DNA of 61,550 bases, taken from Clostridia bacterium. Lineage in GTDB: Bacteria; Bacillota; Clostridia; RGIG7378. The stretch covers positions 1 through 61,550 of the forward strand of contig JAFYSJ010000011.1 of the NCBI GenBank assembly GCA_017559445.1, written 5' to 3'. Positions 47,194 through 52,887 of this stretch are shown here, piece by piece. Under the pieces are notes generated by a model. It did not search any database. It worked only from the letters and a program-made list of their open reading frames with translations, and was not told where the DNA came from. Position numbers and translations under genes: made by a program. Every line of letters starts with the position of its first letter. Positions within the stretch are counted from its first letter, which is position 1.

Positions 47194-49269
47194 ATGAAGA
47201 ATTATACATCCGAGCAAATTCGCAACGTTGCACTTCTTGGTCATGGTGGAAGTGGTAAGACATCTCTTGCAGAGGCAATGCTCTATCGTTGCAAGCATAT
47301 CGATCGTATCGGTAAGGTTACTGACGGCAACACAGCCAGTGATTTTGATCCCGAGGAGATTAAGAGAAAGTTTTCAATTTCTTCATCACTGCTTGCATGT
47401 GAATGGAAGAATACTAAGATTAACTTTTTAGATACACCTGGTTTCTTTGATTATGAGGGCGAAGTAACTGCTGCACTTAGAGTTGCAGGTAGCGCAGTTA
47501 TTTGTGTTCCAGCTAAGAACGGCGTTGAAGTAGGTACAGAGAAGGCAGTTAAGCGCTGCAGAGATTTGGGCCTTTCCGTTATCTTCGTAGTTACTAAGAT
47601 GGACGAGGAGAACGCTGACTATGCTAAGGTTATTGATGAGTTGAGAGAGAAGTTCGGTAAGAACGTTCAGCCAGCTCAGTTGCCAATCATGGACGGCAAG
47701 AAGCTTAAGGCTTATGCAGACCTTATTGAGAATAAGGCATATACATACACAGATGCAGCACCTATTGCTATGGATATTCCAGAGAATATCAAGGGCGAGG
47801 TTGCAACTATTTGGGAGCATCTTAAGGAGTACATCGCAGAGACAGACGAAGAGCTTATGATGAAGTTCTTTGCTGGCGAAGAGTTCACACACGAGGAACT
47901 CGTTACAGGTTTCACAGCAGCTGTTAGAGCAGGTTCTGTAATGCCAGTTATGTGCTCTTCTGCTATTAACAACGTTGGTATTGGCGTTATCCTTGATGCT
48001 ATTGCAACATATATGCCATCTCCATTGGATAGACTTGATACAGTTATGGCAGCAGATCCAGAGACAGGTGATCCAGTTGAGCTTTTGGCTAACGATGAGG
48101 GTACATTCTCTGCATTGGTTTACAAGACAGTTTCTGACCAGTTCGGTAAGCAGACTATGTTTAGAATCTTTAGTGGATGCCTTAAGGGTGATGCTACAGT
48201 TCTTAACACAACAACAGGTAAGACAGAGCGTCTTGCATCTCTCTTCAGCTTGAGAGGTAAGGTTAAGGAGCCAGTTACAGAGCTTCACTGTGGTGACTTT
48301 GGTTGCGTAACTAAGCTTGTTTCTACAGGTACTAACGATACACTTTGTGACGTTAATAAGCCTGTAGTATTGGATAAGATTGAGTTCCCAGTTCCTAACA
48401 TGCGTATGGCAGCTATTGCAGCATCTAGAGGCGATGAGGAGAAGATTGGTGTTGGCTTCGCTAAGATTATGGAAGAAGATCCAACATTTAAGTATGAGAA
48501 CAACGCTGAGACACACCAGATGGTTATTTATGGTTTGGGCGATCAGCATATCGATGTAATTAAGTCCAAGCTTAAGAATAAGTTCGGTGTTACAGTTTCT
48601 CTTGAGGAAGCTAAGGTTCCATACCGTGAGAAGATTAAGAAGAAGGTTAAGGTTCAGGGTAAGCATAAGAAACAGTCCGGTGGTCACGGTCAGTACGGTG
48701 ATGTATGGATCGAGTTCGAGCCACACGAGGGTGATGAGCTTATCTTCGCAGAGAACGTATTTGGTGGTTCCGTTCCTAAGCAGTATTTCCCTGCAGTTGA
48801 GAAGGGACTTCAGGATTGCGTTAAGAAGGGCGTTCTTGCTGGCTATCCTATGATCGGCCTTAAGGCTACATTGGTAGATGGTTCTTACCACGATGTAGAC
48901 TCCAATGAAATGTCCTTTAAGGTTGCAGCATCTCTTGCATATAAGCAGCTTACAACAGCTAACCCAGTATTGCTTGAGCCTGTTGTGCACATTGAGGTTA
49001 CAGTTCCTAACGATAACCAGGGCGACGTTATGGGCGACATGAACAAGCGTCGTGGTAGAGTTATTGGTGTTGACCAGTTGGCAGATGGCCTTTGCTGCGT
49101 AATCGGCGAAGTACCAGAGTCCGAGGTTATGAAGTACGCTACAGACCTTAGAGCTATGACTCAGGGTAGAGGTTCTTACACAACTAAGTTTGAGAGATAC
49201 GAAGAGGTTCCTCCATTCCAGGCACAGAAGATTATCGCTGCTGCAGAGAAGGATCACCACGAGGAGTAA
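47194..49269 (+). CDS. Elongation factor G paralogue (EF-G2-type GTPase)
   Basis: The 691-residue protein has the full EF-G domain order: GTPase domain with GHGGSGKT at 15-22, DTPGFFDY near 79-86 and TKMD near 134, domain II, then III to V with GGHGQYGDVWIEFEP near 493 and RGSYTTKFERYE near 664. GHGGSGKT and the sequence around it differ from canonical FusA (GHIDAGKTT), placing it in the EF-G-like group whose role in translation is not settled. It stands alone with its own promoter and terminator, away from rpsL-rpsG-tuf. Confidence 0.9.
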   Translation: MKNYTSEQIRNVALLGHGGSGKTSLAEAMLYRCKHIDRIGKVTDGNTASDFDPEEIKRKFSISSSLLACEWKNTKINFLDTPGFFDYEGEVTAALRVAGSAVICVPAKNGVEVGTEKAVKRCRDLGLSVIFVVTKMDEENADYAKVIDELREKFGKNVQPAQLPIMDGKKLKAYADLIENKAYTYTDAAPIAMDIPENIKGEVATIWEHLKEYIAETDEELMMKFFAGEEFTHEELVTGFTAAVRAGSVMPVMCSSAINNVGIGVILDAIATYMPSPLDRLDTVMAADPETGDPVELLANDEGTFSALVYKTVSDQFGKQTMFRIFSGCLKGDATVLNTTTGKTERLASLFSLRGKVKEPVTELHCGDFGCVTKLVSTGTNDTLCDVNKPVVLDKIEFPVPNMRMAAIAASRGDEEKIGVGFAKIMEEDPTFKYENNAETHQMVIYGLGDQHIDVIKSKLKNKFGVTVSLEEAKVPYREKIKKKVKVQGKHKKQSGGHGQYGDVWIEFEPHEGDELIFAENVFGGSVPKQYFPAVEKGLQDCVKKGVLAGYPMIGLKATLVDGSYHDVDSNEMSFKVAASLAYKQLTTANPVLLEPVVHIEVTVPNDNQGDVMGDMNKRRGRVIGVDQLADGLCCVIGEVPESEVMKYATDLRAMTQGRGSYTTKFERYEEVPPFQAQKIIAAAEKDHHEE

Positions 49270-49288: not shown

Positions 49289-49323
49289 AAAGAGCATTTC
49301 CCATATGGGAGGTGCTCTTTTTT
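49289..49323 (+). terminator. Terminator after the EF-G paralogue gene
   Basis: AAAGAGCA (49289-49296) pairs with TGCTCTTT (49313-49320), with TCCC/GGGA inside, followed by T residues. Confidence 0.88.
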
Positions 49324-49389
49324 ATTTGGACAAACCATCATTTTAGACAATGTATCTGCATACACTATTCCCAATGGAGGTACATAGCT

Positions 49390-50232
49390 ATGACAGAATT
49401 ACTTAATATGTTAAGGTCCCTAGATGTAGTTGCTTATGGAATTATTGGCGCAATTTTGATTGTTTTTGCAGTATGTATAATTAGCGCCGTTAAAGTCAAA
49501 GCTGGATATGGAATCCTTAGAATGAAGCTTAAGAATAAGGATTACAGAAGGGACGCCAGATTTCAAAGTGAATTTATTAACAGTGTAGTAGATGAATACA
49601 CGGTGGCTGTTTCCACCAATGGTAGTGATATTAATACGTCGGCCATTGTAGACAAATGTATTCAGAGGGATTTAAAGGGACTTCTGTCTGGTGAAAGGTT
49701 CATTAAATCATCTGTTTCCACCATGATTATCTTAGGACTCCTTGGAACATTTCTTGGATTAACTCAATCTGTTAGCAGTTTGTCCACATTCTTTCAAAAT
49801 GGTGAGGATGTTAATTCGGTATTGCAAAGTGCAGGTAACGGTATTATGGATGCCATTAGTGGCATGGGTACAGCTTTTTCTACAAGTTTAGTAGGTGTAT
49901 TTTGCTCAATAATCATTACCTTAACAGGACTTGGATCTGTTGCAGAGGAGTCGAGAATTGCTATGATAACAGACCTTGAGGATTATTTGGATAACACCCT
50001 TTATAGTATTGTGGCAGATGAATATAGCACCAAGGATACAAAAATATATGTGGCAGTAAGCAGGGCTTTGGATGAATTTTTGGATAAGTTAAAGCCAATA
50101 AGTAGGCCCAAGGTCCCAGGAAACCTTATGGAAGCAGTTTCGGAAAAGTCCGTTCAACACACAGGATTTACTGTAAAGCAAGAGAGGAGACAGCCAAGTG
50201 AAGAAGACAACAAGACGACAGTTATTAGCTGA
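49390..50232 (+). CDS. MotA/TolQ/ExbB-like (ZorA-like) stator protein
   Basis: The 280-residue protein has three membrane helices (about 14-34, 109-130, 159-182). GLLGTFLGLTQSVSSL at 116-131 and GMGTAFSTSLVG at 158-169 match the proton-channel helices of MotA, ExbB and ZorA proteins. A cytoplasmic tail of about 95 residues follows. ATG 49390 has GGAGG nine bases upstream; the longer open frame begins inside the terminator and is rejected. It overlaps its MotB-like partner by 35 bp. No flagellar genes are near. The tail is far shorter than in Zorya ZorA. Confidence 0.82.
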   Translation: MTELLNMLRSLDVVAYGIIGAILIVFAVCIISAVKVKAGYGILRMKLKNKDYRRDARFQSEFINSVVDEYTVAVSTNGSDINTSAIVDKCIQRDLKGLLSGERFIKSSVSTMIILGLLGTFLGLTQSVSSLSTFFQNGEDVNSVLQSAGNGIMDAISGMGTAFSTSLVGVFCSIIITLTGLGSVAEESRIAMITDLEDYLDNTLYSIVADEYSTKDTKIYVAVSRALDEFLDKLKPISRPKVPGNLMEAVSEKSVQHTGFTVKQERRQPSEEDNKTTVIS

Positions 50233-51085
50233 GGGACAGAACTTTTGGCCCTCATTTACAGATATTATGTCAGGCATTGTACTCATTATGTTTTTGGTGC
50301 TCATAATGCTGTATATCAACAATTGTATGAAGGCAAGTCAGCTGGCAGCCGCAGAAAATGCACTAGGTATAGCAGTTTCATCCCTAGATGATGCCAATGG
50401 ACAGCTTGTGAGTTCCAATTTAAAGTCTGAAGAACTTCAGGCTTTAATTGATTTGTTAAAACAAAATGCAGAGCTTTCACAGGATGACTATAACGCTAAG
50501 ACCATTGAACTTCAGGAAGCATTGAATGAATTAGAAAACTTAAAGGGACAGTTACAGGAGGTAGCTTTGCTTAGACTTTCCGTGTATGACAAAATTGTAG
50601 ATGCTATAGAATCTCAAATGGGAACTACTGCATCAGATGGTAGCCCTTTGATTTCTGTAAATGATTCTCAGATTGTAATTAATGAAAATCTAGTTTTTGA
50701 CGTGGATTCCTACACCATTAGGCCTGAGGCTTATGAGCTTTTGGACTATTTAGGTCAGGCTTTTGTGACTATTCTTAAGGATCCGGAAGTAGGACAGTAC
50801 ATTAACGCCATTGTGATTGAGGGCCACACTGATGACACAGGTTCCGACTCATATAACAGGGACTTGTCTGCTAAGAGGGCAGTGGCAGTTCTAGATTATT
50901 TGTGCAAGGGAAACAAGGAATTATCATCAAAATATCAGGACCAGTTGGTGGCATCTGCATATGGCCAATGGAGGCCAGTTTCAAGTACAAACAAGTCAAA
51001 AAACAGAAGAATTGGTATTTCAATCATAGTTAAGGATGAATCTATCGAAAAAGTTATAAATAATTATATAAATTCTCAAAATTAG
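50198..51085 (+). CDS. MotB/OmpA-like (ZorB-like) stator partner
   Basis: The 295-residue protein has one membrane helix near 20-41, preceded by FWPSFTDIMSG with D22 in the place of the proton-carrying aspartate of MotB. A coiled coil follows (about 45-125), then a C-terminal OmpA-like peptidoglycan-binding domain (145-285) with VIEGHTDDTGSDSYNRDLSAKRA-like residues near 207-229. The start is GTG 50198 after GAGGAG, inside the ZorA-like gene. The pair should form an ion-driven motor anchored to the wall. dnaG follows, with no nuclease or helicase partner. Confidence 0.82.
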   Translation: MKKTTRRQLLAEGQNFWPSFTDIMSGIVLIMFLVLIMLYINNCMKASQLAAAENALGIAVSSLDDANGQLVSSNLKSEELQALIDLLKQNAELSQDDYNAKTIELQEALNELENLKGQLQEVALLRLSVYDKIVDAIESQMGTTASDGSPLISVNDSQIVINENLVFDVDSYTIRPEAYELLDYLGQAFVTILKDPEVGQYINAIVIEGHTDDTGSDSYNRDLSAKRAVAVLDYLCKGNKELSSKYQDQLVASAYGQWRPVSSTNKSKNRRIGISIIVKDESIEKVINNYINSQN

Positions 51086-51138: not shown

Positions 51139-52887
51139 ATGAGATATTCTGACAGCACAATCGATAAAGTAAGGGATGCCAATGACATTGTTGACGTAGT
51201 AGGTCAATATGTTAAATTGACGCGCAGTGGCAACCGATACAAGGGCCTTTGCCCATTTCATAACGAAAAGACTCCCTCTTTTGTAGTCACACCTGAGATG
51301 CAGATTTACAAGTGCTTTGGTTGTGGCAAGGGAGGTAATGTGTTCACCTTTATTCAGGAATTAGAGAAGGTGGACTTTACTACTGCTGTGGAAATGTTGG
51401 CAGAGAGGGCCCATATAGAGATCACTCCCGAGAATGGTCAGGCCAGTGGCGATGAACAGAGGGCTCGCACCATGTTGGAGATCAATAAGGAAGCGGCCAG
51501 GTTCTATTACAAGCATCTTAACAAGGATCCCAAGGCTATTGATTACGTAAGGCGCAGGGGATTGTCCAATGAGACAGTTAAGGCGTATGCCATTGGTGCC
51601 GCACCAGAAAGTTGGGATAGCCTTTATAAGCATCTAACAGGACTTGGTTACAAGGATAAGGATATTTTGGATTCTAAGCTTTGTGTTTCTAAGCAGCCAG
51701 GCAAGATATATGATGCATTCCGTGGTCGATTGATGTTCCCGATTTTAGATATCAAGGGCAGAGTCATTGCTTTTGGTGGCCGAGTTTATGACAACTCACT
51801 TCCCAAGTACATTAACTCACCTGAGACTAGAGTATATACCAAGGGTGTTAACTTATTTGGTCTTAATGTTGCTAAGTCCCATGCACAGAATGGCTTGATC
51901 TTGGTAGAAGGTTACATGGACTGTATTTCTTTGTTCCAGGCAGGCATTCCCAACGTAGTTGCTTCACTTGGTACTGCACTTACTGAGAAGCAGGCACGAC
52001 TTATTGCCGGTAGGACAAGCCGTGTATATATAAGCTACGATGCTGACGGTGCAGGACAGAACGCTATTGAGAAGGCAATTGCCATTTTCCGTAGGACAGG
52101 CATTGAGATTAGAGTTCTTAAGATACCAGGGTCTAAGGATCCAGATGAGTATATTAAGGCCAAGGGTAAGGAGGCATTCCTACAGCTTTTGGATAACTCA
52201 ATTACTGCCATCGAGTTCTTGGTTCAGAGATTGGAGATTAAGTATTCTCCAGAGACTAATAGACAGAATAGATCAGTTTTCCTCAAGGAGACAGCCAAGA
52301 TTTTGGCATCTATTAATTCTGAAACAGAGCGTGAATTGTACGCAAGACAGTATGGCAATAAGTACCAGGTGAACTACGAGAGCTTGCTTAGAGATTCATC
52401 TAGACAGCAGCCTGTAGAACAATCTGCACCACAGCAGACTATGGTAATGGCAGCTTCCAGCGAGACAGTAGCTATGCAGAACTTGCTTTTGGCCATGGTT
52501 TGTGCAGAAAATGCTTGTTTTAACAAGATAGATTGCTTAAATGCAGATTTGTTTGCAGATCCGGATGTTAAGGCAGCTTACTTGGTTGCCGAGGCAAAGT
52601 ATAAGTCCTACGGAGAAGTTACAATATCTTCTTTGATGCAGGATTTAAATCAACAGATGATAGAGGGTGTCACAGCCCAAGCCTATCACATTAACGACTG
52701 TGACGATGTTTTGGCAGCAGCCAAGGATGTCGCAGCCAAATTAAAGGTCAAAAACCTAATAGCCCTCAAAGAGCGCTTGTCAAATGAGTTGAAGCGACCA
52801 GACATTACAGGGGCAGAGGTTAATGAAATAAATATGAAAATCGCAAAATTGGCCATGGATATCGCCATAGCCAAAAAGGCAATATGA
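51139..52887 (+). CDS. dnaG: DNA primase
   Basis: DnaG makes RNA primers at the replication fork. The 582-residue protein has the CHC2 zinc finger (C38, H41, C59, C62), the catalytic core with GRLMFPILD near 195 and the toprim motif EGYMD near 256, and a C-terminal helicase-interaction domain of lower complexity. ATG 51139 follows a GAAGCGGG-like site. It precedes rpoD in the classical macromolecular-synthesis order; rpsU is not present before it. Confidence 0.96.

What the first reader, a model, noticed from the sequence alone, without database searches (positions are those of the whole stretch)
49390..51085. Orphan ZorAB-like ion-driven motor pair embedded before dnaG-rpoD
Two overlapping genes encode a three-helix MotA/ExbB-like protein and a MotB/OmpA-like partner with an aspartate in the motor-helix position (D22). 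GLLGTFLGLTQ and FWPSFTDIMSG are close in style to ZorA and ZorB of the Zorya anti-phage systems, but no ZorC, ZorD or ZorE follows, and the ZorA tail is short. No flagellar genes are near. The pair could be a stripped motor that signals to an unlinked effector, a division or envelope motor, or an unlinked remnant of a defence system. The place between an EF-G paralogue and dnaG is unexpected for a defence gene, so a housekeeping role in Gram-positive cells deserves thought.
Basis: partly seen in the sequence, partly recalled or inferred. Interest (0 to 1): 0.62.

Follow-up and report, generated by a model that had tools for sequence, protein, structure and literature searches.

The report
ZorAB-like envelope motor of Clostridia
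Two overlapping genes beside the DNA primase gene encode what looks like a small ion-driven rotary motor anchored to the cell wall; it is kin to the motor of the Zorya anti-phage system but belongs to a separate, chromosomally inherited Clostridia family without Zorya's DNA-cutting partners, so it is probably a housekeeping envelope machine.

Summary
A 280-aa MotA/TolQ/ZorA-like protein (49390-50232) overlaps by 35 nt a 295-aa ZorB/MotB-like protein (50198-51085), directly before dnaG-rpoD. Motor and wall-binding residues are intact, and both genes evolve about as slowly as dnaG. The pair is the genome's only MotA/ExbB and only OmpA gene; FliG is absent. It is kin to Zorya ZorAB but not a Zorya system: curated ZorA cut-offs are missed, the long tail that Zorya needs is absent, no ZorC/D/E follows, ZorC is absent from the genome, and a tree separates it from four Zorya pairs (100/99). 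Relatives occur in 52 of 391 sampled Clostridia genomes. Long-tailed ZorA (>=467 aa) is always followed by a dedicated TPR gene (37/37); short-tailed ZorA never (0/63). In one family tail and TPR were lost together; in three Acetivibrio-group genomes ZorB is gone, the motor decayed, and tail and TPR stayed. So the module has two separable halves, and the window lineage keeps only the motor. Best reading: a wall-anchored 5:2 ion-driven motor or gated channel with a housekeeping envelope role. What it drives is unknown. No experiment, and no complex prediction, was available.

The parts
49390..50232 (+). ZorA-like wheel subunit (MotA/TolQ/ExbB family), 280 aa, three TM helices, tail reduced to about 45 disordered residues
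   Evidence: T120, T165, S166 polar ring conserved
50198..51085 (+). ZorB-like axle subunit, 295 aa: TM helix with Asp22, about 120-residue helical stalk, C-terminal OmpA peptidoglycan-binding domain
   Evidence: D22, D212, R227 conserved
49375..49379 (+). GGAGG ribosome-binding site of zorA
   Evidence: sequence, conserved in L011
49289..49320 (+). intrinsic-terminator-like hairpin between the EF-G gene and zorA (14 pairs, T run)
51139..52887 (+). dnaG, 53 nt after zorB, probably co-transcribed; neighbour, not part of the motor
   Evidence: order zorA-zorB-dnaG-rpoD kept in sister species L011
52884..54224 (+). rpoD (housekeeping sigma factor), overlaps dnaG; neighbour

Best explanation
The pair encodes a 5:2 ion-driven motor of the ZorAB/TolQ/ExbB/MotA superfamily. 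Five ZorA-like wheels surround two ZorB-like axles; the axle aspartate (D22) faces a Thr/Ser ring (T120, T165, S166) that passes ions, perhaps Na+. The OmpA domains at the end of a long helical stalk grip peptidoglycan. Wall engagement opens the channel, and ion flow turns the wheel against the wall-fixed axle or leaks charge in response to wall state. The system is a chromosomally inherited, probably housekeeping envelope device of Clostridia, not phage defence. In many relatives the wheel carries a long cytoplasmic coiled-coil tail with a dedicated cytosolic TPR protein as output; the window lineage lacks both, so its output must be the wheel's small cytoplasmic face, the envelope, or the ion flux itself. 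Shown: homology, residue conservation, inheritance, tail/TPR coupling, absence of the known partners tested. Inferred: stoichiometry, ion flow, rotation, wall binding, role.
For: Profiles: PADLOC ZorB1 103.7 bits over residues 10-291, ZorA1 42.5 bits; nearest solved structures by profile are the Shewanella ZorA and ZorB of 8VVN; the family profile hits ZorA but no MotA. Predicted fold TolQ/ExbB/ZorA-like; ZorB model's best match is 8VVN ZorB. D22 98/98, T120 108/108, R227 98/98, D212 94/98. T165 is lost where ZorB is lost (L039). dN 0.22 and 0.17 against 0.18 for dnaG. Only MotA_ExbB and only OmpA gene of the genome; FliG absent. Same place before dnaG-rpoD in the sister species; conserved neighbourhoods within f7, f12, f39 and f53. 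Long tail with TPR 37/37, short tail 0/63; TPR family in 25/391 genomes, all with the ZorA-like gene; coupled loss inside f7.
Against: No experiment. Stoichiometry and rotation rest on homology. The output is not identified; the family sits at different loci in different families, so no neighbour reveals its task. Placement of the window lineage rests on long branches. Presence is patchy in some genera (several flagellated f7/g7 genomes lack it at the threshold used). Co-occurrence with flagella (40/52 against 110/339) is unexplained, though confounded by phylogeny. ZorD, ZorE, ZorF and ZorG were not sought genome-wide.
Confidence: 0.6

Rival explanations
1. A divergent Zorya-type anti-phage system: ZorAB senses envelope damage during phage entry and signals to a TPR or unlinked effector, or acts alone by depolarising the membrane.
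For: Nearest kin are ZorA/ZorB. Zorya type III shows that partners can change (PMC8565338). The TPR gene could be an adaptor.
Against: Tail needed for Zorya defence (PMC11890865) is missing; no ZorC in the genome; ZorAB alone is reported as not sufficient for defence (PMC8565338); TPR partner has no PADLOC match and is absent here; core-gene neighbours and vertical inheritance; complete Zorya I operons in Clostridia are a separate clade.
Confidence: 0.15
2. A sporulation-stage envelope motor, used by mother cell or forespore.
For: Both f1 genomes have TCAT-like and CATA(C/G)ACT boxes 14 nt apart just upstream of zorA, resembling a sigma-E promoter recalled from memory; spoIIGA-like, sigE and sigG genes lie 3-5 kb upstream.
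Against: Two genomes only and no null test was made; by eye other clades show sigma-A-like TATAAT boxes.
Confidence: 0.09
3. An auxiliary stator or motility motor (flagellar or gliding).
For: ZorAB-like genes are enriched in genomes with FliG (40/52 against 110/339).
Against: No FliG in the window genome, the sister species or most f39 genomes that keep the pair. True MotA coexists as a distinct, 100/100-supported clade. No flagellar neighbours.
Confidence: 0.07
4. A decaying remnant of a defence or motor operon.
For: Tail and TPR gene are absent compared with long-tailed relatives.
Against: All motor and wall-binding residues intact; low dN at saturated dS; intact 35-nt overlap in both species.
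Confidence: 0.04

Closest known systems
ZorA/ZorB of Zorya type I (8VVN Shewanella; Clostridial control operon L149)
   Same: Nearest profile and structure kin; W-x-S-x-x-D-x-M-S axle motif; OmpA wall-binding axle; TolQ-like three-TM wheel; Thr/Ser ring with polar residues as in the Na+-type core.
   Different: No ZorC or ZorD, no ZorE, no long tail, no beta strand in the predicted ZorA, longer ZorB stalk, separate clade (100/99), core-gene context.
TolQ-TolR / ExbB-ExbD
   Same: Compact three-TM wheel; best fold matches of the ZorA model (TM-score 0.54 by query and 0.64-0.67 by target with TolQ).
   Different: Axle has an OmpA domain, not the ExbD/TolR fold; no other OmpA/Pal gene in the genome; ZorA scores only 17.5 bits against a TolQ cut-off of 221.
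Flagellar MotA-MotB
   Same: Superfamily, aspartate axle, OmpA-type wall anchor.
   Different: MotA is a distinct clade; the family profile gives no significant MotA hit; no FliG in the host.
Tol-Pal with the TPR protein CpoB (comparison from general knowledge)
   Same: Motor, OmpA-like wall binder and a TPR protein in one operon, as in the long-tailed relatives.
   Different: CpoB is periplasmic; the TPR protein here has no visible signal peptide, is tied to the cytoplasmic tail, and is absent from the window genome.

Membership tests
Zorya (types I-III) | ZorA homologue with MotA/TolQ/ExbB core | tested here: met
   PADLOC ZorA1 9e-12, 42.5 bits; the family profile finds Clostridial ZorA at 43 bits and no MotA
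Zorya (types I-III) | ZorA passes curated family cut-offs | tested here: not met
   NF033915 40.7 bits against 100; NF033917 28.1 against 500; NF041792 14.4 against 700
Zorya (types I-III) | ZorB with axle Asp and OmpA domain | tested here: met
   PADLOC ZorB1 103.7 bits; D22 conserved. The NCBIfam ZorB1 cut-off is missed (39.5 against 400)
Zorya (types I-III) | Long cytoplasmic ZorA tail, required for defence | tested here: not met
   280 aa with disordered 238-280; requirement from PMC11890865
Zorya (types I-III) | Linked ZorC/D, ZorE or ZorF/G | tested here: not met
   Neighbours are EF-G, dnaG and rpoD
Zorya (types I-III) | ZorC (EH_Signature) anywhere in the genome | tested here: not met
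   absent from G000 and from all 52 genomes with the pair; control operons found in G191 and G220
Zorya (types I-III) | Unlinked ZorD, ZorE, ZorF or ZorG | not tested
   not sought genome-wide
Zorya (types I-III) | Zorya-type beta-sheet in the ZorA cytoplasmic domain | tested here: not met
   AlphaFold model all-helical; feature from PMC12505986
Zorya (types I-III) | Anti-phage activity | not testable with these tools
   needs phage challenge
Flagellar MotAB | MotA clade membership, FliG partner | tested here: not met
   MotA separate at 100/100; no FliG in the genome
TolQR/ExbBD | ExbD/TolR-type axle | tested here: not met
   axle is OmpA-type; TolQ score 17.5 against 221
Clostridial ZorA-ZorB-TPR family (defined here) | Same clade of wheel and axle | tested here: met
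   one clade with 28 relatives against four Zorya, 100/99
Clostridial ZorA-ZorB-TPR family (defined here) | Long tail and TPR partner (long-tailed branch only) | tested here: not met
   own-genome TPR search best E 0.11; the window belongs to a short-tailed branch
5:2 ion-driven rotary motors | A5B2 assembly and ion flow | not testable with these tools
   only monomer predictions were available

The most novel reading that the evidence does not exclude
A hitherto undescribed class of wall-anchored ion-driven motors of Clostridia, separate from flagellar, Tol/Ton and Zorya motors. It is a two-part module, wheel/axle plus cytoplasmic tail/TPR output, whose halves have been lost independently, and it shares ancestry with the motor recruited by Zorya for phage defence.
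Probability: 0.42. Interest if true: 0.72.

Novelty: new variant of a known kind. Interest (0 to 1): 0.52.

Why it matters
Known 5:2 motors serve flagella, Tol/Ton import and stability, gliding, secretion or defence. A wall-anchored ZorAB-like motor kept as a core gene in Clostridia, including hosts without FliG or any other MotA/ExbB gene, would add an energised envelope machine and a possible source for the Zorya motor. The natural losses make a clean experimental design: tail and TPR lost with the motor kept, and motor lost with tail and TPR kept. It also warns that annotation by ZorA/ZorB similarity alone can mislabel such pairs as phage defence.

Tried and rejected
Single-sequence search of genome contigs with P0001 found nothing; the alignment query found 453 relatives. 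Plasmid search with ZorB gave only OmpA-domain matches; one (Sinorhizobium, L181) was read and is not ZorAB-like. Phmmer of ZorA alone against PDB: no hit; a profile was needed. Flagellar stator, TolQR and Zorya membership tested and rejected (see membership test). Shared neighbours in the Oscillospiraceae sister clade: no dnaG or other common gene found. The tail/TPR sign test on independent pairs has too few independent changes (2-4) for significance; the case rests on the 37/37 against 0/63 pattern and on the nested f7 loss. L057, L059, L060 and L061 are distant ZorA-like hits and were left out of the family counts.

Full report
WHAT IS THERE. The window (contig C18 of a 1.68-Mb Clostridia-type genome, 96% complete) carries a dcw cluster, ftsZ, sigE/sigG and an EF-G gene, then the pair, then dnaG-rpoD. 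The ZorA-like gene starts at ATG 49390 behind GGAGG; the ZorB-like gene starts at GTG 50198, overlapping by 35 nt. A 14-pair terminator-like hairpin at 49289-49320 separates them from the EF-G gene, and none was found between zorB and dnaG, so the likely unit is zorA-zorB-dnaG-rpoD. The only sister species held (G001; its contig is RGIG5486, sheep colon) keeps zorA-zorB-dnaG-rpoD and the genes beyond, but has a BspA-like repeat protein, not EF-G, upstream.

SELECTION. Between the two species synonymous sites are saturated, while protein identity is 69% (zorA), 74% (zorB), 76% (dnaG) and 87% (rpoD), with dN 0.22, 0.17, 0.18 and 0.09. The pair is constrained like a core gene. It is the only MotA_ExbB match and the only OmpA match of the genome, and FliG is absent.

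WHICH FAMILY. Pfam gives MotA_ExbB (25 bits, cut-off 22.9) and OmpA (64.9 bits). PADLOC gives ZorA1 (42.5) and ZorB1 (103.7, nearly full length); NCBIfam ZorA and ZorB models are hit far below their cut-offs. By profile, the nearest solved chains are ZorA and ZorB of Shewanella 8VVN. A family profile finds Clostridial ZorA at 43 bits and no MotA with significance, and ZorB of L149 above every MotB. The AlphaFold model of ZorA (pLDDT 80) is all-helical with three long helices and a disordered 238-280; Foldseek gives ExbB, TolQ and then ZorA. The ZorB model has a TM helix, a helical stalk to residue 141 and an OmpA fold, with 8VVN ZorB as best match. So: a TolQ/ZorA-type wheel with a ZorB/MotB-type axle.

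NOT ZORYA PROPER. As positive control, Zorya I operons exist in two Clostridia genomes; the complete one is L149 ZorA680-ZorB244-ZorC396-ZorD1150, with a ZorD match of 1122 bits. ZorC-type EH_Signature is absent from the window genome and from all 52 genomes with the present family. Twenty-nine members form one side of a branch (100/99) against four Zorya pairs; the Zorya rows are long branches, so the exact relation is unsure. The tail, which Zorya needs for defence (PMC11890865), is missing. ZorD, ZorE, ZorF and ZorG were not sought genome-wide.

THE FAMILY. A profile finds it in 52 of 391 Clostridia genomes; a few of these are distant or tail-only matches. A scan of genome contigs gave 453 relatives, the best 80 mostly Clostridia, with one Myxococcales and one Proteobacteria MAG. 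Neighbourhoods are conserved within families but differ between them, and families largely cluster in the tree, which points to vertical inheritance with relocations. The closest supported kin of the window genus are short-tailed Oscillospiraceae of ruminants (99/97).

TAIL AND TPR. Among distinct complete loci, ZorA of 467 aa or more is followed by a TPR-type gene in 37 of 37; ZorA of 390 aa or less in 0 of 63 with room to see it. The TPR family occurs in 25 of 391 genomes, and every one also has the ZorA-like gene. It has TPR matches in most members, no PADLOC match and no visible signal peptide. In family f7 the short-tailed clade is nested within long-tailed relatives (94-100 support), beside the same downstream genes: tail and TPR were lost together. 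Three Acetivibrio-group loci show the opposite loss: L039 keeps ZorA and TPR but no ZorB, with Ala at the T165 position and Ser at the G123 position; L056 and L058 keep one TM segment, tail and TPR only. Elsewhere T120, T165, S166 and D22 are essentially invariant. I infer two separable halves: an ion motor, and a tail/TPR output. The number of independent changes is too small for a formal test. The window genome has no TPR partner (best E 0.11).

MECHANISM. Inferred: the OmpA domains (D212 94/98, R227 98/98) bind peptidoglycan and fix the axle; ions pass D22 and the Thr/Ser ring; the wheel turns or the channel conducts. The polar pair T165/S166 resembles the Na+-type core described for type I ZorAB (PMC11890865), but ion choice is untested. 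In the window lineage the output cannot be a long tail; it must be the short cytoplasmic face, envelope force or ion flux. An envelope housekeeping role fits the core-gene context and persistence without flagella. Enrichment in flagellated genomes (40/52 against 110/339) is unexplained and confounded by phylogeny.

NOVELTY. No paper found in the open library describes this Clostridial family; subscription literature was not searchable. PMC12505986 calls ZorAB a remote homologue that it left out of its tree. I rate it a new variant of a known kind.

Noticed in passing
window 49336-49365: ATCATTTT-14 nt-CATACACT upstream of zorA, partly kept in the sister species (TTCATTAT-14 nt-CATAGACT); resembles a sigma-E (sporulation) promoter, but two genomes only and no null test.
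   Followed up: partly
L012 6696-7598, L013 3913-4887, L014 6757-7710, L016 5205-6188 and others (gene after zorB): Dedicated TPR-type protein family (about 300-335 aa) found only in genomes with long-tailed ZorA-like proteins.
   Followed up: yes
L039 8153-10717, L056 4507-7019, L058 8010-10456: ZorB-less loci (Acetivibrio group): ZorA motor residues or the whole motor lost, tail and TPR gene kept.
   Followed up: partly
L149 90-7511, L150 105-6029: Zorya I operons in Clostridia genomes (ZorA-B-C-D complete in L149; ZorA incomplete at the contig start in L150).
   Followed up: partly
class sample of 391 Clostridia genomes: ZorAB-like genes are enriched in genomes with FliG (40/52 against 110/339), reason unknown.
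   Followed up: partly
window 47194-49269: EF-G-family gene of 691 aa between sigG and the pair; not next to the pair in the sister species, where a BspA-like repeat protein lies instead.
   Followed up: no
L073 5587-7956, L090 3173-5045: Members in one Myxococcales and one Proteobacteria MAG group with each other inside the Clostridial family; transfer or contig contamination.
   Followed up: no
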